Below, in pieces: positions 28,678 through 56,574 of a stretch of 64,000 nucleotides of DNA (position 1 is the first letter of the stretch; every line of letters starts with the position of its first letter). Source of the DNA: Mesorhizobium sp. Lineage in GTDB: Bacteria; Pseudomonadota; Alphaproteobacteria; Rhizobiales; Rhizobiaceae. The translations under genes were made by a program, and so were the position numbers. Below the pieces are notes generated by a model. The model saw only the letters and a program-made list of their open reading frames with translations, searched no databases and was not told the origin of the DNA. The DNA is taken from positions 186,001 through 250,000 of the forward strand of contig SAJS01000002.1 in NCBI GenBank assembly GCA_004017535.1. Direction: 5' to 3'.

Positions 28678-30255
28678 ATGACCGCCGCCCTTCATCCCGC
28701 CGAACCGGCATTGGCAACCGATCGCGCCCGCCGTGGCGGCCGCGCGGGCAAGCGCGCCGGCGGCTCGGCCGCTTTCGAGCAGCCCGCCTTCCGGCAGTTG
28801 AAGAACCCGCTGACGCCGACCAAGTTCGTGTCCGACGACGAGTTGGAATCGATCCACCTCGCCTCGCTGCGCGTGCTGAAGGAGATCGGCGTCGACGTCC
28901 TGCACGAGGAAGCCCGCCGCATCATGAAGGCGCATGGCGCGGATGTGCGCGAAGGCTCGGAGCGCGTGCGCTTCGACAGCGACATGATCCTCGAGCTCGT
29001 CTCGCACTGCCCCTCGGAATTCACGCTGCACGCCCGCAACCCGGCGCATAATCTGCGCTTCGGCGGCAACAACCTCATCCTGTCGATGATGGCTTCCGCG
29101 CCCAACTGCTCCGATCTCGACCGCGGCCGCCGGCCAGGCAACCAGGCGGACTATCGCAACTTCCTGCGCCTGGCGCAGATGCACAACATCCTGCAATGCA
29201 CCGGCGGCTATCCGGTCGAGCCGATCGATATCCACCCGTCGGTGCGGCACCTGGAGTGCATCCGCGATCTCGCCATGCTGACCGACAAGGTCTTCCACAT
29301 CTATTCGCTCGGCAAGGAGCGCAATGTCGACGGCATCGAGATCACCCGCATCGCCCGCGGCATCAGCCGCGAGCAACTGATGGCCGAACCGTCGGTCTTC
29401 ACCATCATCAACACCAATTCGCCGCTCAAGCTCGACGTGCCGATGATGGAAGGCATCATCCAGATGGCGAGCATGGGCCAGGCCGTGATCGTCACGCCGT
29501 TCACGCTGTCGGGCGCCATGGCGCCCGTCACCGTCGCCGGCGCGCTGGTGCAGCAGAATGCCGAGGCGCTCTCCGGCATCGCCTTCGCGCAGATGGTCAA
29601 GAAGGGCGCGCCGGTCGGCTATGGCGGCTTCACCTCCAATGTCGACATGAAGTCCGGCGCGCCGGCCTTCGGCACGCCCGAATACATGAAGGCGCAGCTC
29701 GTCGGCGGCCAGCTGGCGCGGCGCTACAACATCCCCTACCGCACCTCAAACACCTGCGCCGCCAACACGGTCGACGCGCAGGCCGCCTATGAAAGCGTGT
29801 TCTCGCTGTGGGGCGCGATCCAGGGCGGCGGCAACCTGATGATGCACGGCGCCGGCTGGCTGGAAGGCGGCCTGCGCTGCTCCTATGAAAAGACGATCCT
29901 CGACATCGACCTGTTGCAGATGGTGGCCGAGTTCCTCACCCCCCTCGACCTTTCCGAGGATGCGCTCGGCTTCGACGCCATCCAGGCGGTCGGCCCCGGC
30001 GGCCATTTCTTCGGCACCCAGCACACGCAGGAGCGCTACAAGACCGCCTTCTACTCGCCGATCGTCTCTGACTGGCGCAACTTCGAAACCTGGACCGAGG
30101 CCGGCTCGCCGACGGCGATGGAACGCACCAACAAGGTATGGAAGGAGCGCCTTGCCTCCTACGAGGAGCCGTATATGGATCCGGCCATCCGCGAGGAACT
30201 CAACGATTTCGTCGAAAAGCGCCGCGCCGAAGGCGGCGCGCCGACGGATTTCTGA
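28678..30255 (+). CDS. MttB-family (trimethylamine methyltransferase-like, non-pyrrolysine) methyltransferase 1
   Basis: 525-residue TIM-barrel methyltransferase of the MttB superfamily. It would move a methyl group from a quaternary amine to a corrinoid protein. No in-frame stop occurs, so it is a non-pyrrolysine member like the glycine-betaine enzyme MtgB. Shared landmarks with the second copy (45159-46733): IVTPFTLSGAMAPVTVAGAL, KKGAPVGYGG, SGAPAFGTPE and HGAGWLEGGLRCSYEK. Residues about 15-31 are an Arg/Gly-rich tail (RARRGGRAGKRAGG) seen on several enzymes of this region. The start at 28678 has GAGG upstream. It is followed after about 100 bases by a dimethylglycine dehydrogenase-like gene. 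The substrate (glycine betaine or another betaine) is inferred. Confidence 0.85.
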   Translation: MTAALHPAEPALATDRARRGGRAGKRAGGSAAFEQPAFRQLKNPLTPTKFVSDDELESIHLASLRVLKEIGVDVLHEEARRIMKAHGADVREGSERVRFDSDMILELVSHCPSEFTLHARNPAHNLRFGGNNLILSMMASAPNCSDLDRGRRPGNQADYRNFLRLAQMHNILQCTGGYPVEPIDIHPSVRHLECIRDLAMLTDKVFHIYSLGKERNVDGIEITRIARGISREQLMAEPSVFTIINTNSPLKLDVPMMEGIIQMASMGQAVIVTPFTLSGAMAPVTVAGALVQQNAEALSGIAFAQMVKKGAPVGYGGFTSNVDMKSGAPAFGTPEYMKAQLVGGQLARRYNIPYRTSNTCAANTVDAQAAYESVFSLWGAIQGGGNLMMHGAGWLEGGLRCSYEKTILDIDLLQMVAEFLTPLDLSEDALGFDAIQAVGPGGHFFGTQHTQERYKTAFYSPIVSDWRNFETWTEAGSPTAMERTNKVWKERLASYEEPYMDPAIREELNDFVEKRRAEGGAPTDF

Positions 30256-30357
30256 TTTTCTGTGTGAGGATGAACAGTCGACCCCCACTCCGTTGGGCTT
30301 CGCTTGGCCTCCATACCAATCATTCGATTCAGTCTCTGTAAAAACGGATCTATCTTC

Positions 30358-32928
30358 ATGAAATCCCACGTAAAAGCGGTTGTCATCGGCGGCGGCGTCG
30401 TCGGGTGCTCGGTGCTTTATCATCTCGCCAAGGCCGGCTGGACCGACATCATGCTGATCGAACGCTCGGAGCTGACTTCCGGCTCGTCCTGGCATGCGGC
30501 GGGCGGCTTCCACACGCTGAACGGCGATCCGAACGTCGCCAAGCTGCAGGCCTATACGGTCCAGCTCTACAAGGAGATCGAGGAACTCTCCGGCCAGTCC
30601 TGCTCGCTGCATTTGACCGGCGGGGTCATGATGGCCGATACGCCCGAGCGCATGGATTTCCTGCGGCTGGCCCACGCCAAGGGCCGCTATCTCGGCATGG
30701 ACACCGAGCTGATCACGCCCTCGGAAGCCAAGGCCATGTTCCCGCTGATGGACGAGAAGAACTTCGTCGGCGCCATGTGGGATCCGGTCGAGGGCCATCT
30801 CGATCCGTCCGGCACCACCATCGCCTATTCCAAGGCGGCCAAGAAACTCGGCGCCGAGATCGTGCTGCGCAACCGCGTCGTTGATCTCACGCAGCAGCCG
30901 GACGGCACCTGGCACGTCGTCACCGAGCAGGGCACGGTCCACGCCGAGCATGTCGTCAACTGCGGCGGCCTGTGGGCGCGCGAGATCGGCCGCATGGTCG
31001 GCGTCGAGCTGCCGGTGCTGGCGATGGAGCATATGTACCTCTTGACCGAGCCGATGCCGGAGGTCGAGGAATTCAACAAGTCGACCGGCCGCGAGATGAT
31101 CGGCGTGCTCGACTTCAAGGGCGAGATCTACACCCGCCAGGAGCGCAACGGCATCCTGCTCGGCACCTATGAGAAGGCCTGCAAGCCCTGGTCGCCGGTC
31201 AACACGCCGTGGGATTTCGGCCATGAGCTTTTGCAGCCCGACATCGACCGCATCGCGCCGTCGCTGGAAATCGGCTTCAAGCATTTCCCCGGCATCGAGA
31301 AGGCCGGCATCAAGCAGATCATCAACGGCCCCTTCACCTTCGCGCTCGACGGCAACCCGCTGGTCGGTCCGGTGCAGGGCCTGACCAACTTCTGGTGCGC
31401 CTGCGCCGTCATGGCCGGCTTCAGCCAGGGCGGTGGCGTCGGCCTCGCGCTCTCCAACTGGATGGTGCATGGTGATCCGGGTTTCGACGTCTGGGGCATG
31501 GATGTCGCCCGCTTCGGCGAATGGGCGACGCTGCGCTACACCAACGCCAAGGTGCGCGAGAACTATTCGCGCCGCTTCTCGATCCGCTTCCCGAACGAGG
31601 AACTGCCCGCCGCCCGCCCGGCGCAGACAACGCCGCTCTACGACACCATGCTCGCCAACAACGCTGTCATGGGCGATAGCTGGGGCCTGGAAACCCCGCT
31701 CTGGTTCGCGCCCAAGGGCACCGAGCCGAAGGACATCGTGTCCTTCCATCGCTCCAACGATTTCGGCCCGATCGGGGAGGAAGTGCGCGCCACGCGCGAG
31801 AAGGTCGGCGTCACCGAGATCGCCAACTTCGCCAAATACGAAGTGTCCGGCCAGGGCGCGGAGGATTTCCTCAACCGGCTGATGACCAACCGGATGCCGA
31901 AGACCGGGCGCATCGTGCTGACCCCGATGGTCAACGAGTTCGGCAAGCTGATCGGCGACTTCACCATCGCCAAATCAGGCGAGGACCGCTTCATGATCTG
32001 GGGCTCTTCAGCCGCGCAGAAATACCATATGCGCTGGTTCGAGAAGCATCTGCCCAAGGACGGTTCGGTGCGCATCCACCGCTTCGACCAGACGCTGGTA
32101 GGACTCTCCATCGCCGGGCCGAAATCCCGCGACCTCCTGCAGAAGCTGGTCGATGTCGACGTCTCGACCAAGGCCTTCCGCTTCATGGACTTCCGCGAGA
32201 TGGCGGTCGGCGGCGCGCCCTGCATGGTAAACCGCATCACCTATACCGGTGACCTCGGCTACGAGATCTGGATGGCTCCGGCGTATCAGCGCCTCGTCTA
32301 CAAGGCGATCAAGGAGGCGGGCGAGGAATTCGGCCTCGTCGATTTCGGTATGCGGGCGCTGCTGTCGATGCGTCTGGAAAAGAACTTCCCGACCTGGTTC
32401 CGCGAGCTTCGCCCGATCTACGGGCCCTTCGAAGGCTCGATGGATCGCTTCATCAAGCTGGAGAAGAACGACTTCATCGGTCGCGAGGCGTCGGCCAAGG
32501 AGCATGCCGAAGGACCAAAACTGCGGCGCGTCTCCTTCATCGTCGATGCCGTCGACGCCGACGTGATGGGCGACGAGCCGATCTGGGCCAAGGTCAGCAA
32601 GGACTTCGGCACGGTCGAGAAGCCGCATGGTTACGGCGCGCCGCGCTTCGACGAAACGGGCAAGGAAGTCCGCGGCTCCAAGGCTGCCGAAGGCGCCTCC
32701 GCCGTGCGCGGCATCGTTGATGGCGAATGGCGCGTTGTCGGCTGGGTGACGTCGGGCGGCTATGCGCATTACGTCCAGAAATCGATGGCGCAGGGCTACG
32801 TCCCTGCTGCTCTCGCCGAGGACGAAAGCGCCGGCCTGTTCGAGATCGAGATTCTTGGCCACCGCCGCCCGGCCCGCATCAATGTTGAGCCGCCCTTTGA
32901 CCCGAGCGGCGAGAAGATGCGGACCTGA
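30358..32928 (+). CDS. dimethylglycine/sarcosine dehydrogenase-like flavoprotein with GcvT domain
   Basis: 856 residues. The N-terminal FAD domain begins VVIGGGVVGCSVLYHLAKAGW. The His of SSWHAAGGFH matches the covalent FAD attachment site of dimethylglycine and sarcosine dehydrogenases. The C-terminal half (about 430-850) is a GcvT-like folate-binding domain with YTGDLGYEIW and a final GRPARIN-type region (GHRRPARINVEPPF). Family members oxidise an N-methyl group and pass the one-carbon unit to THF as methylene-THF. Placed directly after an MttB-type gene, it would act on the product of the first demethylation (for example dimethylglycine). The start at 30358 is set by the nucleotide-binding motif; the ribosome site is weak. 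Confidence 0.88.
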   Translation: MKSHVKAVVIGGGVVGCSVLYHLAKAGWTDIMLIERSELTSGSSWHAAGGFHTLNGDPNVAKLQAYTVQLYKEIEELSGQSCSLHLTGGVMMADTPERMDFLRLAHAKGRYLGMDTELITPSEAKAMFPLMDEKNFVGAMWDPVEGHLDPSGTTIAYSKAAKKLGAEIVLRNRVVDLTQQPDGTWHVVTEQGTVHAEHVVNCGGLWAREIGRMVGVELPVLAMEHMYLLTEPMPEVEEFNKSTGREMIGVLDFKGEIYTRQERNGILLGTYEKACKPWSPVNTPWDFGHELLQPDIDRIAPSLEIGFKHFPGIEKAGIKQIINGPFTFALDGNPLVGPVQGLTNFWCACAVMAGFSQGGGVGLALSNWMVHGDPGFDVWGMDVARFGEWATLRYTNAKVRENYSRRFSIRFPNEELPAARPAQTTPLYDTMLANNAVMGDSWGLETPLWFAPKGTEPKDIVSFHRSNDFGPIGEEVRATREKVGVTEIANFAKYEVSGQGAEDFLNRLMTNRMPKTGRIVLTPMVNEFGKLIGDFTIAKSGEDRFMIWGSSAAQKYHMRWFEKHLPKDGSVRIHRFDQTLVGLSIAGPKSRDLLQKLVDVDVSTKAFRFMDFREMAVGGAPCMVNRITYTGDLGYEIWMAPAYQRLVYKAIKEAGEEFGLVDFGMRALLSMRLEKNFPTWFRELRPIYGPFEGSMDRFIKLEKNDFIGREASAKEHAEGPKLRRVSFIVDAVDADVMGDEPIWAKVSKDFGTVEKPHGYGAPRFDETGKEVRGSKAAEGASAVRGIVDGEWRVVGWVTSGGYAHYVQKSMAQGYVPAALAEDESAGLFEIEILGHRRPARINVEPPFDPSGEKMRT

Positions 32929-33069: not shown

Positions 33070-34581
33070 TTGCGGCAGTTAGAGAAATGGACCGACTGGC
33101 TCTGCGATGAACGGGTCGGCCCCTTCAGCGCCGCGGTCGCGTTTGCCCTCCTCTATTGCCTGACGCAGATCGTGGTGATGCCACTGTTGTCCCACGTTGC
33201 GGGCACCGGCGTAGGCGTCGACGATTCCGAACAGCTGATGGAAATGCGGTTCCTCGCCGCCGGCTACGGCAGCTCGCAGCCGCCTTTATACACCTGGCTG
33301 GCGATGCTTGCGGCCTCGCTGGTCGGAACCAGCGTCCTTGCCCTCAAGATCGTCAAATACGGCCTGCTGGCCGCGGGGCTCACCGCCTATTTCATCGCCA
33401 TACGCCGCTTTGGCTACTCGAACCGCGCCGCCGCCGCCGGCATGTTCGGGCTGCTCCTGTTTCCCCAGATCTTCTGGGAAATGCAGCATGCCCTCACCCA
33501 CTCGGTCGCCATATTCTGCTTCACCTCGGTGCTGCTTCTGGCGCTGGTCGAGGTGGAGAAGCGGCGATCGGCCGTTGCCTATGCGTTTTTGGGCCTGGCG
33601 ACGGCGGCCGCGATGCTGTCGAAATACAACATCGTCATCTTCCTTGCCGCCCTGTTCCTGGCATCTCTATCGGTCCGCGAAACACGTGAGGCGATCTGCG
33701 ACCGCCGCTTCCTGATCAGCGTGACCGTGGCGATCCTTGCGTGCCTCCCGACGCTTTACTGGAGCATCGCGCACCCGGATGACTTCCTGGCGCACAGCGG
33801 CGGCTTCGGCGCTGGCAAGGGCGAAAGCCCCCTGGAGACGGCGGCGCTCGCCCTGCGGGGGCTTGGCAATGCGATACTCAATTTCGCGGGTATGCCGATA
33901 GCTATCGTTGCCGTCGCGTTTTTCCTGGTCGCACGAAAAACCGTCACAACGCCACAGCCGGCGCGCTGGCCCGAAAAGCTGCTGTGGCGCACGATTGCCC
34001 TTGCCTTGCTGGTCACGCTGGTGGTGGTTCTGGTCGGTGGCATCACCCAGTTTCGCGATCGCTGGGTGCTACCCATATTCGTCCTTTTGCCCGCCGTCCT
34101 TGCCATGCGTTTTGACGCCATCGGCCACAGGGGCGGAAAAGCACAGGGAACCATCGTCTTCGTCGGCGCGGTCCTCGCCATCCTTGTTCTGCCGGTAAGC
34201 TGGTACATGCATCTGCACGGCGGCGACAGCCGCGGCGGCGTCGTGCGTATGGATTACAGGTCGCTTTACGAGCAGATCAACGCTGACGGACCGGTCAAGA
34301 CCGTGGTGTCGAGCTGGTTCTGGGTCGGCAATCTGCGCCTGGTCGACGCCGATCTCATCGCGCTCGATGACGAGACACCGGACTTCGCCCGGTCGATCCG
34401 CGAGCCGGCGGTGCTTGTGCTGACCGATGACAGGGAATCGTCCTCGGACGTCTTCGAAGAATTGGCGAGAGCCGGCTATGCGATGGACACTGTCCACCGC
34501 ACTGTCGAGGTGCCGCAGGCGCTCGGCTTCCCGCCGCGCAAGGTCACGATCACCAAACTGCATAAGAAGATCGCGCCGTAA
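33070..34581 (+). CDS. ArnT-like/PMT-family (GT39) membrane glycosyltransferase
   Basis: About 503 residues, with roughly ten membrane helices. The first periplasmic loop carries the family acidic motif in VGVDDSEQLMEMR and SQPPLYTWL. Members transfer a sugar from a polyprenyl-phosphate donor to lipid or protein. The soluble C terminus (about 380-503) is short. The start is uncertain: a TTG at 33070 with GAGAAG upstream fits, and a TTG at 33013 in frame is an alternative. It lies between the flavoprotein and the DddP-like gene but has no evident link to methyl transfer. Confidence 0.72.
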   Translation: MRQLEKWTDWLCDERVGPFSAAVAFALLYCLTQIVVMPLLSHVAGTGVGVDDSEQLMEMRFLAAGYGSSQPPLYTWLAMLAASLVGTSVLALKIVKYGLLAAGLTAYFIAIRRFGYSNRAAAAGMFGLLLFPQIFWEMQHALTHSVAIFCFTSVLLLALVEVEKRRSAVAYAFLGLATAAAMLSKYNIVIFLAALFLASLSVRETREAICDRRFLISVTVAILACLPTLYWSIAHPDDFLAHSGGFGAGKGESPLETAALALRGLGNAILNFAGMPIAIVAVAFFLVARKTVTTPQPARWPEKLLWRTIALALLVTLVVVLVGGITQFRDRWVLPIFVLLPAVLAMRFDAIGHRGGKAQGTIVFVGAVLAILVLPVSWYMHLHGGDSRGGVVRMDYRSLYEQINADGPVKTVVSSWFWVGNLRLVDADLIALDDETPDFARSIREPAVLVLTDDRESSSDVFEELARAGYAMDTVHRTVEVPQALGFPPRKVTITKLHKKIAP

Positions 34582-34597
34582 GGTGTCAGGGGGACGA

Positions 34598-42802: not shown

Positions 42803-42804
42803 GG

Positions 42805-43362
42805 TCACACTTCCCCGGCTGAACGCATCAGCATCTTCAGCCGTTTCTTCGCTTCATGGATGTGCCAGGAAACCGTCGTCTCCGAGATCGCCATCACCTC
42901 CGCCGCCGCCGCGTGGTTGAGACCTTCGCCATAGACGAGCAGCACCGCATCGCGTTGCTTGTCCGGCAGCAGCCGCACCGTCTTCCACAACGCCTCGGCG
43001 GGATCGTCCGCCGGCACCTCGCCCGCGATCGACGCATAGGCGCCATAGGCATCGACCTTGGCGGTATCGCGGGCGCGCTTGCGCATCATGTCGCGCGAAG
43101 CATTCAGCGTAATGGCATAGAGCCATGTCGTGAAGGCGCCATTGCCCTGATAGTCGCGGATCGCGCGGCCGAGCCGCACGCAGACATCCTGAGCAATGTC
43201 CTCGGCGTCGGCCTTCCTGCCGCACCAGCGATAGGCGGCGCGATAGACGAAGCCATAGTGCCTTTCGACCAGTTTGCCGAAAGCCCCCCTGTCTCCGCCC
43301 CTCGCCCGCCCGATCAACTCGGCATCGGAGGCTTCGCTGTCGTCCAGCATCATCGCCGTCAT
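42805..43362 (-). CDS. ECF RNA polymerase sigma factor
   Basis: 185 residues with sigma region 2 (LVERHYGFVYRAAYRWCG, then DAEDIAQDVCVRL, GAFTTWLYAITLNASRD) and region 4 (LPDKQRDAVLLVYGEGLNHA, ISETTVSWHIHEAKKRL). No region 3, as in ECF factors. Co-transcribed with the VWA-domain protein gene, as in several alphaproteobacteria. The regulator is probably that membrane protein or a partner not seen here. Confidence 0.9.
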   Translation of the reverse strand: MTAMMLDDSEASDAELIGRARGGDRGAFGKLVERHYGFVYRAAYRWCGRKADAEDIAQDVCVRLGRAIRDYQGNGAFTTWLYAITLNASRDMMRKRARDTAKVDAYGAYASIAGEVPADDPAEALWKTVRLLPDKQRDAVLLVYGEGLNHAAAAEVMAISETTVSWHIHEAKKRLKMLMRSAGEV

Positions 43363-44379: not shown

Positions 44380-45069
44380 CTACACCCCGGCGAACGCCGC
44401 CATATGGAAGGCCTGGATATCAGCCGGATAGCGATACTCAGCGCCATAGGGACAGGCGTTGCGGTCGAGGCAGCCGCCGCTCCGGCAGGGCTCGCCTCGC
44501 GGTCCGCGCACATGCGCCAGACACGCCTGGTGCGCAAAGCCATCCACCGAATAGGCGTCCACCGGACAGGATTTCAGGCAGGGTTTTTCGACACATGTGT
44601 CGCAAAGATGAATCGCTGCATGAGGTTCGGGAACAGAAATCTCGCCCTCGAACAGCAACGCGCCGCGATAGGCATGCCAAAGCCCATACTGAGGATGCAT
44701 GAGGATGCCGAGCGGCGACGGCCTCAGCGCTTCCGCCCGCATCGCCCATTGCTGGAACGGCAGGTAAGGCCGGTCTGAAGGCGAAACGGCACGCGCGCCG
44801 AAGCCTTGCGCGACCGCGCCGATCACCTCACGCGCCCAGCTGTCGAGCGGATTGGCGATGGCCCGAGGCTGTCCCTCGAGCCAGCGTTGGAAATATGGCC
44901 ATGGCGCCGCGCCCGCCTGTCCAACAAGGAGCACCGATTTGGCTGGAAAGCCGGAAAGTCCGGCTGGCGCCATCTCATCGTCGCCAAAAGTGAAACCGCT
45001 GCGAAGGATCAGGCCATTGGCCGCGAGCGCGGCCGCAATCTCCTCGGCCGTGCCGCGCGAAAAAGTCAT
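44380..45069 (-). CDS. 4Fe-4S ferredoxin-type protein near the corrinoid genes
   Basis: 229 residues. A C-terminal part has eight Cys suited to two [4Fe-4S] clusters: CDTCVEKPCLKSCPVDAY, then a second set around HQACLAHV, GEPCRSGGC and RNACPYGAEY. The N-terminal half has no motif I can name, but the arrangement is like QueG-type epoxyqueuosine reductase. Encoded next to the second MttB gene on the same strand. In corrinoid systems such proteins reduce cob(II)alamin, so electron supply for reactivation is a reasonable guess, not shown. Confidence 0.75.
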   Translation of the reverse strand: MTFSRGTAEEIAAALAANGLILRSGFTFGDDEMAPAGLSGFPAKSVLLVGQAGAAPWPYFQRWLEGQPRAIANPLDSWAREVIGAVAQGFGARAVSPSDRPYLPFQQWAMRAEALRPSPLGILMHPQYGLWHAYRGALLFEGEISVPEPHAAIHLCDTCVEKPCLKSCPVDAYSVDGFAHQACLAHVRGPRGEPCRSGGCLDRNACPYGAEYRYPADIQAFHMAAFAGV

Positions 45070-45158: not shown

Positions 45159-46733
45159 TCACGTGAAGGCGTCCGGCATCGAGCCTTTCTTCTTGGCGAT
45201 GAACTCCTTCAGCGCCTCGTCGATGGCCGGATCGAGATGCGGCGCCTCGTAGCTCTCCAGCCAGCGGCGGGCTAGCTCGTTGGCGCGCTGCGGCGCGGTC
45301 TTCTCGCCCTCGGCCAGCCACTGCTCATAGGAATTGTTGTCGGCGATGTTCGAGCGGTAGAAGGCCGTCTGGAAATTCGCCTGGGTGTGATCGCAGCCGA
45401 GATAATGGCTGCCCGGACCGACCTGGCGGATGGCGTCCATCGCCTGGCCGTTTTCCGACAGGTCGACGCCCTCGCAGAACTTCTGCTGCATGCCGAGCTG
45501 ATCGATGTCCATCATGAATTTCTCGTAGCAGGAGGCGAGACCGCCCTCGAGCCAACCCGCCGAATGCAGCACGAAATTGGTGCCTGCAAGGATCGTCGAG
45601 TTGAGCGTGTTGGCGCTCTCATAGGCCGCCTGCGCATCCGGGATCTTCGAGGCGCAGAGCGAGCCGCCGGTGCGGAACGGCAGGCCGAGCCGCCGCGCCA
45701 GCTGGGCAGCGCCGTAGGAGACCAGCGACGGCTCCGGCGTGCCGAAGGTCGGCGCGCCGGACTGCATCGAGATCGACGAGGCGAAGGTGCCGAACAGCAC
45801 CGGCGCGCCGGGCTTGATCAGCTGCGTGAACGAGGCGCCGGCGAGCACTTCTGCCAGCACCTGCGTCAGTGTGCCGGCGACCGTCACCGGGCTCATCGCA
45901 CCGGCCAGGATGAAGGGCGTGACGATACAGGCCTGGTTGTGGCGCGAATAGACTTTCAGCGCGCCGAGCATCGTCTCGTCGAACACCATCGGCGAGTTGG
46001 CGTTGATCAGGCTGGTCAGCACCGTGTTGTTCTCGACGAAGTCGTCGCCGAACACGAGCTTGGCCATCGCCACCGTGTCCTCGGCCCGCTCCGGCGCGGT
46101 CACAGAGCCCATGAACGGCTTGTCCGAGTAACGGATATGCGCGTAGATCATATCGAGATGGCGCTTGTTGACCGGCACGTCGACCGGCTCACACACCGTG
46201 CCGCCCGAATGGTGGATCGAAGGCGCCATGTAAGCGAGCTTCACGAAATTCTGGAAATCCTCGATCGTCGCGTAGCGGCGGTTGCCGTCAAGATCGCGCA
46301 CGAAGGGCGGGCCGTAGACCGGCGCGAACACGGTCGCGTTGCCGCCGATCTGTACCGAGCGTTCCGGGTTGCGCGCATGCTGGGTGTAGATGGAAGGCGC
46401 GGTCTTCAGCAGCGAGCGGCAGAGCCCCTTAGGGAAATGCACGCGCTCGCCCTTGACGTCGGCGCCCGCTTCTTTCCACAGCGCCAGCGCCTCGGCGTCA
46501 TCGCGAAAGATGATGCCGATCTCTTCCAGCACCGTGTCGGTGTTCTTCTCGATCAGCGCCAGGCCTTCCTCGTTGAGGACCTCGTAGACGTTGATCTTGC
46601 GCTTGATGTAGGTGAGCTGGGTGCCCGGACCGCCGCCTGAACGGGCTGCCCGGCGTGCCGCCGCGCCGCCGCTGGCGCCGCGACCGCGTCGTCCACCCGG
46701 CGCTTCCTGCTCGACTGCCGCGTTATCGCTCAT
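45159..46733 (-). CDS. MttB-family (non-pyrrolysine) methyltransferase 2
   Basis: 524 residues, a second MttB superfamily member with the same landmarks as the first (IVTPFILAGAMSPVTVAGTL, KPGAPVLFG, SGAPTFGTPE, HSAGWLEGGLASCYEK), but clearly diverged, so a different substrate is possible. No in-frame stop. The N terminus (about residues 13-36) is Arg/Gly/Ala-rich (GGRRGRGASGGAAARRAARS). AGGAAG lies before the ATG. Divergent from the corrinoid-protein gene across about 270 bases, which makes them a natural pair: methyltransferase plus its corrinoid partner. Confidence 0.87.
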   Translation of the reverse strand: MSDNAAVEQEAPGGRRGRGASGGAAARRAARSGGGPGTQLTYIKRKINVYEVLNEEGLALIEKNTDTVLEEIGIIFRDDAEALALWKEAGADVKGERVHFPKGLCRSLLKTAPSIYTQHARNPERSVQIGGNATVFAPVYGPPFVRDLDGNRRYATIEDFQNFVKLAYMAPSIHHSGGTVCEPVDVPVNKRHLDMIYAHIRYSDKPFMGSVTAPERAEDTVAMAKLVFGDDFVENNTVLTSLINANSPMVFDETMLGALKVYSRHNQACIVTPFILAGAMSPVTVAGTLTQVLAEVLAGASFTQLIKPGAPVLFGTFASSISMQSGAPTFGTPEPSLVSYGAAQLARRLGLPFRTGGSLCASKIPDAQAAYESANTLNSTILAGTNFVLHSAGWLEGGLASCYEKFMMDIDQLGMQQKFCEGVDLSENGQAMDAIRQVGPGSHYLGCDHTQANFQTAFYRSNIADNNSYEQWLAEGEKTAPQRANELARRWLESYEAPHLDPAIDEALKEFIAKKKGSMPDAFT

Positions 46734-47921: not shown

Positions 47922-47974
47922 GAACGGTGTCTCCCTCGACAGATATTAAGCCCCGCAGCGAAAGCCGGCCCGAC

Positions 47975-48604
47975 TTGGTCAAGACGCAAAAAACGGAACC
48001 GAATCAAACAGACAGGCTGCTCGTCATCGCCTGCGGGATGATTGCGCGCGAAGTTTTGGCCGTCAAGCAACAGCTAAAGCTCGACCATCTCGAGCTGACC
48101 TGCCTGCCGGCCGAGTTCCATTTCTATCCGGACCGCATCGCGCCGGCGATGGACAAGGCGATCGAGAAGGCCAAGGCGGAGGGCTACGATCACATCTTCG
48201 TCGGCTATGCCGACTGCGGCACGGGCGGCCTGCTCGATCGCGTCATCGAGAAGCACGGCGTCGAGCGCATGGCCGGGCCGCACTGCTTTGCCTTCTACCA
48301 GGGCATGGACGCCTATGCGAAGGTCGCCGATGGCGACATGATGTCGTTCTACATGACCGACTTCCTGTGCCGCCAGTTTGAGGCCTTCTTCATCAAGCCG
48401 CTCGGCCTCGACCGGCATCCCGAGCTGATCAAGGACTATTTCGGCAATTACGAGAAGCTGATTTATCTCGCCCAGACCGACGATCCGGAACTCGACAAGG
48501 TCGCCGAGAAGGCTGCGGTTATGCTCGGCCTCGCGTACGAGCGCCGCCGGACTGGCTATGGTGATCTGAGGGCCGAGCTGGCGCGGGCGGCGGAATCTGG
48601 CTGA
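47975..48604 (+). CDS. DUF1638 protein, accessory to methyl-transfer systems
   Basis: About 209 residues, soluble, with conserved DUF1638 pieces: LLVIACGMIAREVLAV at the start, YPDRIAPAMDKAIEKA, GYADCGTGGLLDRVIEK and AGPHCFAFYQGM. Several Cys and His are conserved, so metal or cofactor binding is possible. Genes of this family are often found beside corrinoid methyltransferase genes, but the function is unknown. The start is uncertain: no ATG, TTG 47975 is preferred, GTG 47927 overlaps the divergent lipoprotein gene. Confidence 0.75.
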   Translation: MVKTQKTEPNQTDRLLVIACGMIAREVLAVKQQLKLDHLELTCLPAEFHFYPDRIAPAMDKAIEKAKAEGYDHIFVGYADCGTGGLLDRVIEKHGVERMAGPHCFAFYQGMDAYAKVADGDMMSFYMTDFLCRQFEAFFIKPLGLDRHPELIKDYFGNYEKLIYLAQTDDPELDKVAEKAAVMLGLAYERRRTGYGDLRAELARAAESG

Positions 48605-50127: not shown

Positions 50128-50394
50128 ATGTCTAATATGGCTCCTCTCAGCGTCCGGGTGACGTTGGACGAACGCGAGATACTTGAAGCCGCCGCAAGCC
50201 AAGCCAACACCAATCTCAGTGACTTTATCCGCCGCAAAGCAGTCGAAGCCGCTGAAATGGAGGTGTTGGACGGACGTCTCGTAGCGATCCCGGCTGCAGA
50301 TTGGGAAAAGTTTGAGGCTTGGGCGAAGTCGCCGCCGCGGGCGCGCGCCGGTCTGCAAAAGCTCGCTGCATCGCAGCCTGTATGGCAGGACTGA
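50128..50394 (+). CDS. DUF1778 antitoxin (ribbon-helix-helix)
   Basis: 88 residues. N-terminal ribbon-helix-helix DNA-binding half (PLSVRVTLDEREILEAAASQ, then NTNLSDFIRRKAVEAA), followed by a C-terminal segment that neutralises the partner. The TacA family pairs with a GNAT acetyltransferase toxin. The start at 50128 is chosen; a palindrome lies upstream. The stop overlaps the start of the toxin gene by 13 bases, the standard arrangement. Confidence 0.85.
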   Translation: MSNMAPLSVRVTLDEREILEAAASQANTNLSDFIRRKAVEAAEMEVLDGRLVAIPAADWEKFEAWAKSPPRARAGLQKLAASQPVWQD

Positions 50395-50891
50395 CAGAAC
50401 CTCGACCGCTTGCTGCGGACGACGACAGAGACGCCTTCGACTGCGGTCGTGAGTCGCTGAACAATTGGTTTCGCCGCAATGCCTGGCGCAATCAACAAGA
50501 CGGAATCTCGCGCACCAGCATCATATGCGCAAACGGTCTCATTGCCGCCTATGTCGCCCTCAGCGCCGGCCAGATCGAACGGGCATATCTGCCAAAGTCT
50601 TCGCAACGCAATCGCCCTGATCCGATCCCCATAATTCTGCTTGGCCAACTTGCCGTGGATCTTCGCTATCAAAATCGAGGATGCCGACGTTCGCTTCTCT
50701 TATTTGCGCTCCGCACTGCGGTACGATTGTCGGCCGACATCGGATGCTTCGGCGTCCTCATCCACCCGCTCGACGAAACGGTGAGAGACTTCTATCGCAG
50801 CTTCGATTTCGAAGACCTGCCGTTCGATCCGAAACGAAGTATGATCGTGCGTATCGCCGACTTGAGAGAAAGCGGCTTCGGCTACGAATAA
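50382..50891 (+). CDS. GNAT-family acetyltransferase toxin (TacT-like)
   Basis: 169 residues of the TacT toxin type, which acetylates aminoacyl-tRNA and stalls translation. It starts inside the antitoxin gene (MAGLTEPRPLAADDDRDAF). Acetyl-CoA binding is in LGQLAVDLRYQNRGCRRSLL, but where most homologs have the pattern Q-x-x-G-x-G this reads QNRGCR, so the second Gly is missing. The catalytic Tyr is kept (RDFYRSFDFE). It may be weakly active or inactive; this needs a test. Confidence 0.8.
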   Translation: MAGLTEPRPLAADDDRDAFDCGRESLNNWFRRNAWRNQQDGISRTSIICANGLIAAYVALSAGQIERAYLPKSSQRNRPDPIPIILLGQLAVDLRYQNRGCRRSLLLFALRTAVRLSADIGCFGVLIHPLDETVRDFYRSFDFEDLPFDPKRSMIVRIADLRESGFGYE

Positions 50892-51064: not shown

Positions 51065-51367
51065 ATGGCCGATCTGATCGTCGTCTATTGGCGCGACATT
51101 CCCGCCCAGGTCATCGTCAAGAAGGGCCGGCAGAACGCCAAGCGCGAACTGCCGCTGCGCTTCACCGAGGCAATCGACATGTGCGCCATGCGCACCGGCG
51201 CCGGCGGCACCGACGACTATCTGGCGGAATGGCGCAAGGCCGACCCGGTTCCGGTCGGCGACGACATCGAGGCCGAGGTCGAGAAGGCCTATCAGGAACT
51301 CGACGCGAAATATGATCGCGAGCGGCTGGTCGCTCTGGTCAAGGCTGGCGGGAAAGAAAATGTCTGA
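51065..51367 (+). CDS. 'virulence factor' family protein of the MetV-MetF operon
   Basis: 100 residues matching the family annotated as virulence factor (PF13769-type), despite the name found in non-pathogens: MADLIVVYWRDIPAQVIVK, AKRELPLRFTEAIDMCAMRT and GTDDYLAEWRKADPVPVG. No known activity. It is translationally coupled to the next gene: its stop (51365-51367) lies inside it. GAGGAG lies upstream. Its constant presence before a MetV-like gene in my recall suggests a job in that complex; it is not a virulence gene by any evidence here. Confidence 0.75.
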   Translation: MADLIVVYWRDIPAQVIVKKGRQNAKRELPLRFTEAIDMCAMRTGAGGTDDYLAEWRKADPVPVGDDIEAEVEKAYQELDAKYDRERLVALVKAGGKENV

Positions 51368-51950
51368 CAAGCAGCCGGCGGTCACCCAGGCCACATTGGT
51401 CAAGAAGGCAGCGCCGAAATCCGACTACAAGCCTGCCGACGTGTCGCCGCAGCGGCGCGTCCAGCGCACCTTCGCCGTGCGGCTGTGGTCGATCAGGCAT
51501 TCGCGACTGCTCGAATGGTTCTACAGCCGGTTCGCCGACGCCTTCCTGCTCCTCCACCCTCTGTGGAAGGGCATCGGCTACGGCCGGGTCGAAGCTCCGG
51601 TCAAGTTTGTCGAGAAGCGCGTGAAGGGCTTCATGTTCGACTGCCGCATGTGCGGCCAGTGCGTGCTTTCCTCCACCGGCATGTCGTGCCCAATGAACTG
51701 CCCGAAGCAGCTGCGCAACGGCCCTTGCGGCGGCGTGCGCGCCAACGGCAATTGCGAGGTCGAGCCGGACATGCCTTGCGTCTGGGTCAAGGCCTGGGAA
51801 GGCTCGCGCAATATGGTGCATGGCGACAAGATCCTGACCGTGCAGAAGCCCGTCGATCAGTCGCTGCGCGAAACCTCGGCATGGCTGCGCGTGACCGCGC
51901 AGGCTGCCGCCGCGCGTGAAACGAGCCAGACCCCCGGAGCTTCGGCATGA
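51360..51950 (+). CDS. MetV-like methylenetetrahydrofolate reductase C-terminal (Cys-rich) protein
   Basis: 196 residues. A Cys-rich metal or Fe-S cluster region reads CRMCGQCVLSSTGMSCPMNC, then PKQLRNGPCGGVRANGNC and MPCVW, the MTHFR_C family known from MetV, the small subunit of the MetFV reductase of acetogens. In those organisms MetV lets MetF use or give electrons beyond NADH. The N-terminal part has a helical linker. Overlaps at both ends (51360-51367 and ATGA 51947-51950) couple it to the upstream small protein and to metF. Confidence 0.85.
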   Translation: MSDKQPAVTQATLVKKAAPKSDYKPADVSPQRRVQRTFAVRLWSIRHSRLLEWFYSRFADAFLLLHPLWKGIGYGRVEAPVKFVEKRVKGFMFDCRMCGQCVLSSTGMSCPMNCPKQLRNGPCGGVRANGNCEVEPDMPCVWVKAWEGSRNMVHGDKILTVQKPVDQSLRETSAWLRVTAQAAAARETSQTPGASA

Positions 51951-53038: not shown

Positions 53039-53080
53039 CAGCATTGTCGGCACGCATTCGCTTGAACCAAATCAGATAAC

Positions 53081-53102: not shown

Positions 53103-53118
53103 CCGACGGAGAGATCGC

Positions 53119-54093
53119 ATGACCCGCACCATCGTCGCCTCGGCGACCCGAGAAATCGTCATCGGCTTCGATCAGCCCTTCTGCGTGATCGGCGAACGCA
53201 TCAACCCGACCGGCCGCAAGAAGCTCGCCGCCGAGATGGTGGCCGGCAACTTCGAGACCGTCATCAAGGACGCGCTGGAACAGGCCGCCTGCGGCGCCAC
53301 CATGCTCGACGTCAATGCCGGCGTCACCGCCGTCGACCCGAACGCGACCGAGCCGGCGCTTCTGGTGCAGACGCTCGAGATCGTGCAGGGCCTGGTCGAC
53401 CTGCCGCTGTCGATCGACTCTTCGGTCACCGCCGCCATCGAGGCCGCGCTGAAGGTCGCCAAGGGCCGCCCGTTGGTCAACTCCGTCACCGGCGAGGAAG
53501 AGAAGCTCGAGGCCATCCTGCCGCTGGTCAAGAAATACAACGTCCCGGTCGTCGCCATCTCCAACGACGAGACCGGCATCTCGATGGATCCGGATGTCCG
53601 CTTCGCCGTCGCCAAGAAGATCGTCGAGCGCTGCGCCGACCACGGCATTCCTTCGCATGACGTCGTGGTCGACCCGCTGGTGATGCCGATCGGGGCGCTG
53701 GGCGATGCCGGACGCCAGGTGTTCGCGCTGCTGCGGCGGCTCCGCGAAGAGCTCAAGGTCAACACCACCTGCGGCCTCTCCAACATCTCCTTCGGCCTGC
53801 CGCACCGCCACGGCATCAACGCCGCCTTCATCCCGATGGTGATCGGCGCCGGCATGACCTCCGCAATCATGAACCCGGTCCGTCCGCAGGAAATGGAAGC
53901 CGTGCGCGGCGCCAATGTGCTCAACGGCACCGACGAGAACTGCACCAACTGGATCCGCACCTACAAGGACTACAAGCCGGCCGAAGGCGGCCATGCCGCT
54001 GCCGCTCCGGTCGCGGTCACCGCTCCTGGTGAAGGCGCTGCCGCCGGCGGCCGCCGCCGCGGCGGCCGCGAAGCCCGCATGGCCAGGGGATAA
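53119..54093 (+). CDS. methyltetrahydrofolate:corrinoid methyltransferase (MtrA/AcsE-type)
   Basis: 324 residues, pterin-binding TIM-barrel of the DHPS/MetH-pterin/AcsE fold. Moves methyl between THF and a corrinoid protein, in either direction. Landmarks: CVIGERINPTGRKKLA at the start, MLDVNAGVTAVDPN, SIDSSVTAAIEAAL, VAISNDETGIS, then DPLVMPIGAL and CGLSNISFGLPHR. Its C terminus (about 295-324) is low-complexity, ending AAGGRRRGGREARMARG. GGAG at 53108 fits the ATG. A perfect palindrome overlaps the promoter. Confidence 0.88.
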   Translation: MTRTIVASATREIVIGFDQPFCVIGERINPTGRKKLAAEMVAGNFETVIKDALEQAACGATMLDVNAGVTAVDPNATEPALLVQTLEIVQGLVDLPLSIDSSVTAAIEAALKVAKGRPLVNSVTGEEEKLEAILPLVKKYNVPVVAISNDETGISMDPDVRFAVAKKIVERCADHGIPSHDVVVDPLVMPIGALGDAGRQVFALLRRLREELKVNTTCGLSNISFGLPHRHGINAAFIPMVIGAGMTSAIMNPVRPQEMEAVRGANVLNGTDENCTNWIRTYKDYKPAEGGHAAAAPVAVTAPGEGAAAGGRRRGGREARMARG

Positions 54094-54172
54094 GCGCGCA
54101 ATCGTGGGCCGCACCGCAAACAAGGTTGGTCCGATCGCATCGTGGATGCGGTCGGATAGCTCTGCTTTGCGT

Positions 54173-54415: not shown

Positions 54416-54504
54416 GATTGGCCCCTGGACCAACGGACTCTCCGCCCAATAGTAGAACGATCCGTTAAACGGCATCGGCAATTGCCATCGAGACGCGTGC
54501 CAGC

Positions 54505-56574
54505 ATGAATCCTCCCGCCAACATCACCGATCCGCTCGTCCTGTTCATGCCGTCGGGCAAGCGCGGCCGGTTCCCGGTTGGCACGCCGGTGCTCGATGCG
54601 GCGCGCCAGCTCGGCGTCTATGTCGAAAGCGTGTGCGGCGGCCGCGCCACCTGCGGGCGCTGCCAGATCGAGGTGCAGGAAGGCAATTTCGCCAAGCACA
54701 AGATCATCTCGTCCAACGACCACATCTCGCCCAAGGGCGCCAAGGAAGAGCGCTACGAGCGCGTGCGCGGCCTGCCCGAGCGGCGCCGCCTCTCCTGCTC
54801 GGCACAGATACTCGGCGACCTCGTCATCGATGTGCCGCAGGACACGGTCATCAACGCCCAGACCATCCGCAAGGACGCCGACACCAGGGTGATCGCGCGC
54901 GATACGGCGATCCGCATGTGCTATGTCGAGATCGAAGAGCCCGACATGCACAAGCCGCTCGGCGATCTCGACCGGCTCAAGATCGCCCTGATGAAAGACT
55001 GGGGTCTCAAGAATCTCGAATTCGATTTCTATCTTCTGCCGCAGGTGCAAGGCATCCTGCGCAAGGGCAACTGGACCGCAACGGCCGCCATCCACAAGGA
55101 TGCCGACAGCGACATCGCGCGCGTCATCGCGCTGTGGCCTGGCCTGAAGAACGAGGCCTACGGCCTCGCCTGCGACATCGGCTCGACCACCATTGCCATG
55201 CATCTGGTGTCGCTGCTGTCGGGCCGCGTCGCCGCGTCCTCCGGCACCTCCAATCCGCAGATCCGCTTCGGCGAGGATCTGATGAGCCGCGTCTCCTATG
55301 TGATGATGAATCCGGACGGCCGCGAGGGCATGACGGTTGCCGTGCGCGAGGCCATTTCCAGCCTGGTCGACAAGGTGTGCGCCGAAGGCAACGTCCAGCG
55401 TAACGACATCCTGGATTCCGTCTTCGTCGGCAATCCGATCATGCATCATTTGTTCCTCGGCATCGATCCGACCGAGCTCGGCGGCGCGCCCTTCGCGCTC
55501 GCCGTCTCCGGCGCGGTGCGCATCAAGGCCTCCGACATCGGCCTGAAGCTCAACCAGGGCGCGCGCCTCTACATGCTGCCCTGCATTGCCGGCCATGTCG
55601 GTGCCGATGCCGCCGCCGTCACGCTGTCGGAAGGCCCGCATCGCCAGGACGAGATGATGCTGATCGTCGACGTCGGCACCAACGCCGAGATCGTGCTCGG
55701 CAACCGGACGCGCGTCGTCGCGGCCTCGTCCCCCACCGGCCCGGCCTTCGAGGGCGCGGAAATCTCCGGCGGCCAGCGCGCGGCGCCCGGCGCCATCGAG
55801 CGCGTGCGCATCGATCCGGACACGCTGGAGCCGCGCTACCGCGTCATCGGTTCGGAGCTCTGGTCAGATCAGCCGGGCTTCGCCGAAAGCGTACAGGCGA
55901 CAGGCGTCACCGGCATTTGCGGCTCCGGCATCATCGAAGTGATCGCCGAGATGTATCTGTCGGGCATCATCTCCGAAGACGGCGTCGTAGACGGGTCGCT
56001 TGCCGCGCGCTCGCCCCGCGTCGTACCCAACGGCCGCACCTTCTCCTATGTGCTGAAGGAAGGCGAGCCGAAGATCACCATCACGCAGAACGACGTGCGC
56101 GCCATCCAGCTTGCCAAGGCGGCGCTCTATGCCGGCACCAAGCTGTTGATGGAAAAGCAGCACGCCGATCATGTCGACCGTATCCACTTCGCCGGCGCCT
56201 TCGGTTCCTTCATCGATCCGAAATATGCCATGGTGCTCGGCCTGATCCCGGACTGCGACCTCGACAAGGTCTCGGCCGTCGGCAACGCCGCCGGCGCCGG
56301 CGCGCGCATGGCGCTCTTGAACCGTGGCTACCGTCGCGAGATCGAAGAGACGGTGAGCAGGATCGAGAAGATCGAGACGGCGTTGGAACCGAAATTCCAG
56401 GAGCACTTCGTCTACGCCATGGCGTTGCCGAACAAGGTCGACCCCTTCCCCAAGCTGTCGGCCGCGGTGAAGCTGCCGCCGCGCAAGGCAATGAGCGAGG
56501 ACGGCGCCACAGGCGACGCCACCCCGCGCCGGCGCTCACGCGAGGAGCGCGCGGCGCGCCGCGGCCGCGACTAA
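54505..56574 (+). CDS. ASKHA-domain [2Fe-2S] corrinoid reductive activator (RACo/RamA-like)
   Basis: 689 residues. The N-terminal [2Fe-2S] ferredoxin domain carries CGGRATCGRCQIEV and the fourth Cys in RLSCSAQILG. From about residue 200 comes an ASKHA (actin/Hsp70-like) ATPase fold with phosphate loops in GLACDIGSTTIAMHL and IVDVGTNAEIVLGNRT. Such proteins use ATP to reduce inactive cob(II)alamin back to cob(I)alamin so the corrinoid carrier can accept methyl groups again. The C-terminal tail (PRRRSREERAARRGRD) is Arg-rich. It needs an electron donor; the ferredoxin at 44380-45069 is a candidate. Confidence 0.9.
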   Translation: MNPPANITDPLVLFMPSGKRGRFPVGTPVLDAARQLGVYVESVCGGRATCGRCQIEVQEGNFAKHKIISSNDHISPKGAKEERYERVRGLPERRRLSCSAQILGDLVIDVPQDTVINAQTIRKDADTRVIARDTAIRMCYVEIEEPDMHKPLGDLDRLKIALMKDWGLKNLEFDFYLLPQVQGILRKGNWTATAAIHKDADSDIARVIALWPGLKNEAYGLACDIGSTTIAMHLVSLLSGRVAASSGTSNPQIRFGEDLMSRVSYVMMNPDGREGMTVAVREAISSLVDKVCAEGNVQRNDILDSVFVGNPIMHHLFLGIDPTELGGAPFALAVSGAVRIKASDIGLKLNQGARLYMLPCIAGHVGADAAAVTLSEGPHRQDEMMLIVDVGTNAEIVLGNRTRVVAASSPTGPAFEGAEISGGQRAAPGAIERVRIDPDTLEPRYRVIGSELWSDQPGFAESVQATGVTGICGSGIIEVIAEMYLSGIISEDGVVDGSLAARSPRVVPNGRTFSYVLKEGEPKITITQNDVRAIQLAKAALYAGTKLLMEKQHADHVDRIHFAGAFGSFIDPKYAMVLGLIPDCDLDKVSAVGNAAGAGARMALLNRGYRREIEETVSRIEKIETALEPKFQEHFVYAMALPNKVDPFPKLSAAVKLPPRKAMSEDGATGDATPRRRSREERAARRGRD

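What the first reader, a model, noticed from the sequence alone, without database searches (positions are those of the whole stretch)
28678..56574. A near-complete corrinoid/folate methyl-transfer system in a presumably aerobic rhizobial genome
One 28-kb stretch encodes two MttB-type methyltransferases, a corrinoid carrier, methyl-THF:corrinoid methyltransferase, an ATP-dependent [2Fe-2S] corrinoid activator, MetF with a MetV-like partner, Bmt, and a dimethylglycine/sarcosine dehydrogenase-like flavoprotein. Together they could strip methyl groups from a betaine or similar compound and feed THF. Such systems are best known from anaerobes. Low-potential cob(I)alamin chemistry under air would be a physiological puzzle.
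Basis: partly seen in the sequence, partly recalled or inferred. Interest (0 to 1): 0.9.

Follow-up and report, generated by a model that had tools for sequence, protein, structure and literature searches.

The report
Aerobic B12 methyl-transfer gene cluster
A soil bacterium of the Mesorhizobium kind carries a vitamin-B12 enzyme set that very probably both makes methionine and strips methyl groups from betaine-like compounds in air; this kind of system was recently described by others, but two conserved proteins beside it, one resembling the human B12-processing protein CblC, seem to have been overlooked.

Summary
In detail: every gene named is there, and the core keeps its order in many rhizobia (80 loci). 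The main idea is not new. It is the aerobic MtgBCDE system: one corrinoid protein (MtgC) and one methyl-THF methyltransferase (MtgD) serve both a split methionine synthase (with MtgE/'Bmt') and a quaternary-amine demethylase (with MttB-type MtgB), with a RamA-like protein and DUF1638 for reactivation (PLoS Genet 2018; PNAS 2025, which also reports colocated genes in Sinorhizobium meliloti). The genome fits: no MetH, one corrinoid carrier, seven MttB proteins. How cob(I)alamin survives air stays open. I add two neglected parts. (1) The 229-aa gene directly downstream of MttB2, annotated elsewhere as 'ferredoxin' or 'hypothetical protein', belongs by fold to the MMACHC (human CblC)/QueG/reductive-dehalogenase B12 superfamily and has eight conserved cysteines: a candidate corrinoid chaperone or reductant. 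(2) The 100-aa PF13769 'virulence factor' is tied to this system (53 of 54 carriers among 289 sampled alphaproteobacteria have MttB). Function of both is inferred, not shown. Substrates of the two MttB proteins are unknown.

The parts
28600..30255 (+). MttB1, MttB/MtgB-family corrinoid methyltransferase without pyrrolysine
   Evidence: PF06253 662 bits; no in-frame stop; NCBIfam pyrrolysine-type TIGR02369 296 bits, below cut-off 525
30304..32928 (+). dimethylglycine/sarcosine dehydrogenase-like flavoprotein with folate-binding GCV_T domain; 48 bp after MttB1
   Evidence: PF01266, PF16350, PF01571, PF08669
39070..40113 (+). Bmt / MtgE, homocysteine methyltransferase module of the split methionine synthase
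   Evidence: PF02574; PRK07534 565 bits over cut-off 338; best PDB relatives are methionine synthases, BHMT weaker; aligns to MetH 3-323
44380..45069 (-). 229-aa CblC/QueG-like protein with eight conserved cysteines (two [4Fe-4S] clusters inferred), directly downstream of MttB2; candidate corrinoid chaperone or reductant
   Evidence: no Pfam hit at 1e-3; weak MMACHC E=0.036 and QueG E=0.12; AF2 model pLDDT 92, pTM 0.88; Foldseek's 50 listed matches are MMACHC, QueG and reductive dehalogenases; eight invariant Cys in 52 sequences
45159..46733 (-). MttB2, MttB/MtgB-family methyltransferase
   Evidence: PF06253 776 bits; no in-frame stop; closest solved chain 4yyc_A, 982 bits; 2qne_A 425 and 9yce_A (named glycine betaine methyltransferase) 424 bits
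46946..47704 (+). MtgC, cap plus B12-binding corrinoid carrier; the only PF02607 match of the genome
   Evidence: PF02607, PF02310; one match in own genome; aligns to MetH 633-863
47927..48604 (+). DUF1638 protein, implicated in corrinoid reactivation by published fitness data on its Phaeobacter homologue
   Evidence: PF07796 81 bits; PMC5764234
49282..50073 (+). formyltransferase-like gene, often kept after DUF1638, role unknown
   Evidence: PF00551 66 bits; in 46 of 80 loci
51065..51367 (+). PF13769 protein, annotated 'virulence factor' in an S. meliloti record; conserved partner of the Mtg system, role unknown
   Evidence: PF13769 96 bits; in 68 of 80 loci; 53 of 54 sampled class genomes with it have MttB; annotation
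51312..51950 (+). MetV-like partner of MetF; the frame as listed overlaps the PF13769 gene by 56 bp, so the true start may lie further in
   Evidence: PF12225 95 bits
51947..53038 (+). MetF2, methylenetetrahydrofolate reductase, proposed to run as methyl-THF oxidase
   Evidence: PF02219 106 bits; frame overlaps the end of MetV by 4 bp
53119..54093 (+). MtgD, methyl-THF:corrinoid methyltransferase
   Evidence: PF00809; PRK07535 396 bits over cut-off 259; aligns to MetH 318-592
54505..56574 (+). RamA/RACo-type ATP-dependent corrinoid activator with N-terminal [2Fe-2S] domain
   Evidence: PF14574 302 bits, PF17651, PF17650, PF00111

Best explanation
This is an aerobic MtgBCDE corrinoid hub. MtgC carries the corrinoid. 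In one direction MttB1 or MttB2 moves a methyl group from a quaternary amine to cob(I)alamin on MtgC, MtgD passes it to THF, and MetF2 with its MetV-like partner oxidises methyl-THF to methylene-THF; the GCV_T flavoprotein beside MttB1 would take the next methyl group. In the other direction MtgD methylates MtgC from methyl-THF and MtgE (Bmt) makes methionine. RamA, with DUF1638, returns accidentally oxidised cob(II)alamin to cob(I)alamin. Shown here: gene content, gene order, absence of MetH and of PF02965, one carrier against seven MttB. Taken from published work on homologues: the dual role and the reactivation role. Inferred: substrates, direction of MetF2, and that the 229-aa CblC/QueG-like protein and the PF13769 protein serve this hub.
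For: Family matches. The own genome has no MetH over cut-off; four MetH-like partial matches were found, three of them this window's Bmt, MtgC and MtgD, the fourth a weaker homocysteine-methyltransferase-like gene outside. No PF02965. One PF02607 carrier against seven MttB. Across 289 sampled genomes of the class MttB and RamA occur together in 59, MttB without RamA in 3, RamA without MttB in 5; MttB and DUF1638 together in 52, MttB without it in 10, DUF1638 without MttB in 1. In 101 genomes of the family 40 of 71 MttB genomes lack PF02965 against 6 of 30 without MttB. Of the five MttB genes outside the window, three (L128, L129, L130) have a GCV_T-type FAD enzyme or an ABC-transporter gene near them among the neighbours that I scanned; L131 and L132 showed neither. 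Published genetics: PMC12478193 (parts 1-4 of 6 read), PMC5764234 (passages).
Against: No expression or activity data for this organism. 31 of 71 MttB genomes of the family keep PF02965, so the hub does not always replace MetH. Purified Phaeobacter Bmt is reported to make methionine directly from betaine or DMSP without cobalamin (PMC12366255, abstract and passages), which conflicts with a purely modular role. NCBIfam's strict cut-offs for MtgC, RamA/AcsV and MttB are not met.
Confidence: 0.86

Rival explanations
1. The hub here is biosynthetic only: a split methionine synthase with its reactivation proteins, the MttB genes being unrelated passengers or scavengers of minor importance.
For: MetH is absent and the three pieces are all here; RamA occurs without MttB in 5 of 289 class genomes, one of which (G225) also has DUF1638 and an MtgC-like gene beside a homologue of the 229-aa gene (L112).
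Against: MttB and RamA co-occur in 59 of the 67 class genomes that have either; where MttB2 was found near MtgC it lies upstream on the opposite strand in 73 of 74 loci; Ruegeria mtgC and mtgD mutants do not grow on glycine betaine even with methionine (PMC12478193).
Confidence: 0.07
2. Bmt acts alone as a betaine:homocysteine methyltransferase and the corrinoid genes serve other substrates.
For: NCBIfam names it betaine--homocysteine S-methyltransferase; in-vitro activity of Phaeobacter Bmt (PMC12366255).
Against: Its best solved relatives are methionine synthases; human BHMT is far weaker (7e-41 against 7e-11). PMC12478193 states that S. meliloti-type Bmt lacks residues needed for betaine binding and that methionine restores growth of the bmt mutant on betaine.
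Confidence: 0.1
3. The 229-aa protein is a general B12-handling (CblC-like) protein or a QueG-type reductase with no special tie to the Mtg hub; its place after MttB2 is incidental.
For: 14 of 60 class genomes with a strong hit lack MttB, 12 of them lack MttB, RamA and DUF1638; in the class sample it lay within 6 kb of a listed MttB, RamA or DUF1638 gene in only 9 of 60 genomes, own included (a lower bound); it follows a mutase gene of IcmF-like domain make-up in one (L118) and cobalamin-assembly genes in Methylibium.
Against: In the window's family all 62 carriers found in 101 genomes have MttB, and in 67 of 67 loci with both genes it is downstream of MttB2 on the same strand.
Confidence: 0.45

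Closest known systems
MtgBCDE dual methionine synthase / glycine betaine demethylase of Ruegeria pomeroyi and its S. meliloti counterpart (PMC12478193)
   Same: Same modules: PF06253, PF02310, PF00809, PF02574, RamA-like, DUF1638, MetF2; no MetH in the window's genome; several MttB paralogues; an annotated S. meliloti record has the same order of genes from RamA to the 229-aa gene, small genes in between apart.
   Different: Genes here lie together as the paper says of S. meliloti, unlike Ruegeria; MttB substrates untested; the main text does not mention ferredoxin, iron-sulfur or virulence, so neither the CblC/QueG-like gene nor the PF13769 gene is named in those words (supplements not seen).
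Split methionine synthase of Phaeobacter inhibens with DUF4445 and DUF1638 reactivation proteins (PMC5764234)
   Same: Three separate MetH modules plus RamA-like and DUF1638 proteins, no PF02965.
   Different: The passages seen do not deal with MttB, MetV or PF13769.
MtgBAC glycine betaine system of Desulfitobacterium hafniense (as cited in PMC12478193)
   Same: MttB-family methyltransferase, carrier, methyltransferase to THF.
   Different: Anaerobe; no homocysteine module described; window MttB2 scores 424 bits to the chain named glycine betaine methyltransferase (9yce) against 982 to 4yyc. That 9yce/2qne come from D. hafniense and 4yyc from S. meliloti is recalled.
MMACHC / CblC (PF16690), QueG (TIGR00276), reductive dehalogenases, for the 229-aa gene
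   Same: Same fold by Foldseek; a shared HPxxGxWxAxRG-like stretch with MMACHC; Fe-S cysteines as in QueG and dehalogenases (recalled).
   Different: Shorter than QueG; carries a C-terminal eight-cysteine domain that MMACHC lacks (recalled); below the cut-off of every curated family matched.

Membership tests
MtgBCDE dual system (PMC12478193) | MttB-family, corrinoid carrier, methyl-THF methyltransferase and homocysteine module as separate proteins | tested here: met
MtgBCDE dual system (PMC12478193) | RamA-like activator and DUF1638 present | tested here: met
MtgBCDE dual system (PMC12478193) | classical MetH absent (about 70% of MtgBCD genomes in the paper) | tested here: met
MtgBCDE dual system (PMC12478193) | MetE absent (in most MtgBCD genomes of the paper) | not tested
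MtgBCDE dual system (PMC12478193) | required for methionine synthesis and growth on glycine betaine | not testable with these tools
   needs mutants
Pyrrolysine-type trimethylamine methyltransferase MttB (TIGR02369) | score over curated cut-off and in-frame TAG for pyrrolysine (the latter recalled) | tested here: not met
   296 and 282 bits against 525; no stop inside either frame
Classical MetH (TIGR02082) | one chain with all modules and PF02965 | tested here: not met
RamA/RACo corrinoid activators | RACo linker, middle and ASKHA domains with an Fe-S N-terminus | tested here: met
   Pfam cut-offs passed; the narrower NCBIfam AcsV and RamA cut-offs are not passed (387/800, 122/500)
Betaine-homocysteine methyltransferase (PRK07534) for Bmt | score over curated cut-off | tested here: met
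   565 bits, cut-off 338
Betaine-homocysteine methyltransferase (human BHMT type) for Bmt | betaine-binding residues | not tested
   only the literature statement in PMC12478193
MMACHC (PF16690) for the 229-aa gene | score over gathering cut-off | tested here: not met
   14.1 bits against 27; a divergent homologue in L110 reaches 20.8 bits, E 3e-4, still below the cut-off
MMACHC/QueG/reductive dehalogenase fold superfamily for the 229-aa gene | overall fold | tested here: met
   Foldseek E 2.6e-8 to MMACHC, 1e-5 to QueG, 8e-4 to dehalogenases, TM-scores by query length 0.40-0.60
MMACHC/QueG/reductive dehalogenase fold superfamily for the 229-aa gene | binds a corrinoid | not testable with these tools
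   needs protein
QueG (TIGR00276) for the 229-aa gene | score over cut-off | tested here: not met
   11.3 bits against 200

The most novel reading that the evidence does not exclude
The 229-aa gene downstream of MttB2 founds a bacterial CblC-like family: a corrinoid-binding protein fused to a two-cluster [4Fe-4S] domain that loads, dealkylates or re-reduces the corrinoid of MtgC (and, in other lineages, of mutases such as IcmF), supplying the low-potential electrons that the RamA/DUF1638 activators need in air. The PF13769 'virulence factor' would be a further, unrecognised subunit of the same reactivation or methyl-transfer machinery. This would give a concrete answer to how cob(I)alamin chemistry is kept running in aerobes and a bacterial parallel to the human CblC route to methionine synthase and methylmalonyl-CoA mutase.
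Probability: 0.35. Interest if true: 0.75.

Novelty: new member of a known kind. Interest (0 to 1): 0.45.

Why it matters
The system itself links osmolyte use, methionine supply and B12 demand in soil and plant-associated bacteria, as already argued for the ocean. The added value is that comparative genomics points to two conserved proteins, not found in the papers that I searched, whose deletion would test directly how an aerobe keeps super-reduced cobalamin available. In the annotated records seen one is called virulence factor, the other ferredoxin or hypothetical protein. If the CblC-like reading holds, human B12 processing has a bacterial counterpart working on a methionine synthase.

Tried and rejected
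Considered and rejected: pyrrolysine-type trimethylamine methyltransferases (TIGR02369 cut-off not met and no in-frame stop); a classical MetH elsewhere in the genome; PF13769 as a subunit of MetFV only (rejected because 14 of 68 loci keep PF13769 with MtgD, RamA and DUF1638 but show no MetF, and because in 33 of 48 class genomes with both it lies within 200 bp of DUF1638 on the same strand; in the window's own genome the two are 2.5 kb apart); the 229-aa protein as an MttB-specific factor only (rejected because 14 of 60 class genomes with it lack MttB).

Led nowhere: fold search of the PF13769 model gave no match below E 0.15 although the model is confident (pLDDT 91.5); sequence search of MetV and PF13769 against solved structures gave nothing meaningful; Rfam found only two tRNA matches; the ten neighbours of 229-aa homologues that I scanned in MttB-free genomes showed no B12 domain except the mutase of L118; in 18 of the 20 fetched contexts (14 from genomes without MttB, 6 from genomes with it) none of the B12-related proteins that I used as queries was found, apart from one weak aminotransferase match in L120. 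My ORF caller did not pick the 229-aa homologue in 9 of the 20 contexts, so one search used tblastn.

Dropped before counts: 11 weak class hits of the 229-aa profile (E between 7e-8 and 7e-4) were set aside from the 60 strong ones; nine of them were fetched, and their best NCBIfam match is QueG, at 47-57 bits against its cut-off of 200. One weak hit in the family (G094, E 5e-5) was not counted among the 62; its region was fetched, and no frame of 200 residues or more there reached E 0.1. RamA in G328 (below cut-off) was not counted. For the alignment of the 229-aa gene I gave the window plus 51 of 64 usable homologues; for PF13769 the window plus 33 of 46. Fisher p-values ignore shared ancestry.


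Full report
WHAT WAS CHECKED. I called genes by frame composition and scanned most of the predicted proteins of the window against Pfam and a part of them against NCBIfam. The window lies in a genome of 6.86 Mb in 73 contigs; the closest named MtgC genes are from Mesorhizobium, so 'rhizobial' is right.

WHAT THE SYSTEM IS. The genome has no protein over the MetH cut-off. Four partial matches to the MetH model were found. Three are separate genes of this window: Bmt (model positions 3-323), MtgD (318-592) and MtgC (633-863). The fourth, weaker and homocysteine-methyltransferase-like, lies at C22:271681, outside the window. The MetH reactivation domain PF02965 is absent. There is one match to the carrier domain PF02607 and there are seven MttB-family proteins, 23-64% identical to one another. 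Three of the seven have a GCV_T-domain FAD enzyme next to them or within a few kb (MttB1 here, L128, L130) and two have peptide-type ABC transporter genes close by (L129, L130); among the neighbours that I scanned L131 and L132 had neither. I read this as a hub with spokes: one carrier, one methyltransferase to folate, one activator, several substrate enzymes.

THIS KIND IS KNOWN. PLoS Genet 2018 (PMC5764234; passages seen) identified by transposon fitness a three-part methionine synthase in Phaeobacter inhibens together with a RamA-like DUF4445 protein and a DUF1638 protein as likely B12 reactivators. PNAS 2025 (PMC12478193; parts 1-4 of 6 read) showed in Ruegeria pomeroyi that mtgC and mtgD mutants are methionine auxotrophs and do not grow on glycine betaine even with methionine, noted up to seven MttB-type genes in such marine genomes, and reported that in S. 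meliloti the genes lie together. The S. meliloti gene order is visible on an annotated record (CP090106).

HOW GENERAL. In 101 genomes of the family MttB is in 71 and PF02965 in 55; 40 of the 71 MttB genomes lack PF02965 against 6 of the 30 others. In 289 sampled genomes of the class MttB is in 62, RamA (PF14574, over cut-off) in 64, both in 59; DUF1638 in 53, of which 52 have MttB. The genomes are related, so these are not independent events.

AN OVERLOOKED PROTEIN, 1: THE 229-AA GENE. It lies 89 bp downstream of MttB2 on the same strand. It has no Pfam family at 1e-3. Its best weak matches are MMACHC in Pfam (E 0.036) and, among cobalamin enzymes in NCBIfam, QueG (E 0.12). Fifty-two sequences align with eight invariant cysteines; all eight are kept in 32 of 35 rows of a wider set that contains three genes twice. 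The structure prediction is confident (pLDDT 92, pTM 0.88). Foldseek against the PDB returns human MMACHC first (E 2.6e-8), then QueG and reductive dehalogenases; all 50 listed rows belong to these three groups (TM-scores by query length are moderate, 0.40-0.60). By sequence profile alone the PDB search is not significant: plain Fe-S subunits rank first (E 0.028 and 0.042) and MMACHC third (E 0.072), with a stretch GxxIHPxxGxWxAxRG aligned; the arginine is, from recall, one that is mutated in human cblC disease. A divergent homologue (L110), which keeps four of the eight cysteine positions in my alignment, matches MMACHC at E 3e-4, below the family cut-off. Nine longer proteins weakly hit by the profile have QueG as best NCBIfam match, again below its cut-off. 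Fold and weak sequence signals agree on the B12-reductase superfamily.

ITS DISTRIBUTION. In the family it is in 62 of 101 genomes (one weak hit, G094, not counted), and all 62 have MttB; 9 MttB genomes lack it. Two of the family matches carry an in-frame stop (G085, G019). In 67 of 67 loci with both genes it is downstream of MttB2 on the same strand, in 58 of them within 209 bp; 8 loci have an MttB2 match without it. In the class sample it is in 60 of 289, 46 with MttB, while 16 MttB genomes lack it. Results against a tight link: 12 of the 60 have none of MttB, RamA and DUF1638, and it is rarely next to these genes in the class sample (9 of 60 within 6 kb, own genome included; a lower bound because the MttB list was cut). 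Elsewhere it follows a mutase gene of IcmF-like domain make-up by 20 bp (L118), lies about 30 bp before an MtgC-like stretch in a genome without MttB (L112), follows cobalamin-assembly genes in Methylibium (a distant match, 28.5% identity) and follows an MttB gene in Paracoccus aminovorans. I read it as a B12-handling protein that the rhizobial Mtg operon has taken on. Corrinoid binding and electron transfer are inferred.

AN OVERLOOKED PROTEIN, 2: PF13769. This 100-aa protein, called 'virulence factor' in an S. meliloti record, is in 70 of 101 family genomes, 69 of them with MttB; the two MttB genomes without it are 85% and 76% complete. In the class sample it is in 54 of 289, 53 with MttB, while 9 MttB genomes lack it. 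In 33 of 48 class genomes with both it lies within 200 bp of DUF1638 on the same strand; in the window it is 2.5 kb away. In 14 of 68 loci it accompanies MtgD, RamA and DUF1638 without MetF. It therefore goes with the corrinoid module and not with MetFV alone. Its predicted fold has no significant PDB match.

IN PRINT? A search for papers with at least three of PF13769, virulence factor, methylenetetrahydrofolate reductase and corrinoid found none. DUF1638 is in three papers of the library. The main text of PMC12478193 holds no ferredoxin, iron-sulfur or virulence. Searches that combine MMACHC or CblC with QueG, bacterial homolog or 4Fe-4S terms (listings only) showed no title or abstract start on such a bacterial protein. 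These cover only the held open-access library, and supplements were not seen.

HOW IT MOST LIKELY WORKS. Quaternary amine plus MtgC-cob(I)alamin gives a tertiary amine and methyl-MtgC (MttB1 or MttB2); methyl-MtgC plus THF gives methyl-THF (MtgD); methyl-THF is oxidised by MetF2 with the MetV-like protein. In reverse, MtgD charges MtgC from methyl-THF and MtgE makes methionine. RamA and DUF1638 rescue cob(II)alamin. The electron source for RamA in air is not given in the parts of the papers that I saw; the 229-aa protein is the best candidate in the locus, and this is the testable new point.

VERDICT. A real, well-conserved system; a member of a recently described kind; two neglected conserved parts. 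Interest is moderate as found and higher if the CblC-like reading is proved.

Noticed in passing
21655-22272 (-) and 20186-21655 (-): A PF16867 (DMSP_lyase cupin) gene abuts a CobB/CobQ-like glutamine amidotransferase gene. With the DddP-like gene below this hints at DMSP use, untested.
   Followed up: no
34427-35938 (+): DddP-like M24 protein: 478 bits to the DddP equivalog, below its cut-off of 600, so not assignable as a DMSP lyase.
   Followed up: no
49282-50073 (+): A formyltransferase-like gene is found near MtgC in 46 of 80 loci, also beside DUF1638 in an S. meliloti record; it could handle formyl-THF but no role is known to me.
   Followed up: partly
50319-50891 (+): ORF with a weak GNAT acetyltransferase match (E 0.0056), found near MtgC in only 1 of 80 loci (L023): perhaps a recent insertion into an otherwise conserved block.
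   Followed up: no
40610-43362 (-): A YfbK/VWA-domain gene and an ECF sigma factor gene are found near MtgC in 38 and 40 of 80 loci, with no evident link to methyl transfer.
   Followed up: no
4467-4606 (+): Two adjacent tRNA matches in Rfam (4467-4538 and 4543-4606), where ARAGORN calls a single tRNA of undetermined type.
   Followed up: no
L110:3254-4027: A divergent homologue of the 229-aa protein that keeps four of the eight cysteine positions in my alignment and matches MMACHC at E 3e-4: a possible bridge between the Fe-S form and CblC.
   Followed up: partly
L127:5914-6534 (Methylibium petroleiphilum plasmid RPME01): A distant homologue of the 229-aa protein closes a run of genes that includes cbiB, cobyric acid synthase, cobT and cobS; its C-terminal cysteines are missing, and the next gene is a transposase.
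   Followed up: partly
G285:C88:45973-47545: Two PF13769 matches about 1.1 kb apart beside DUF1638.
   Followed up: no
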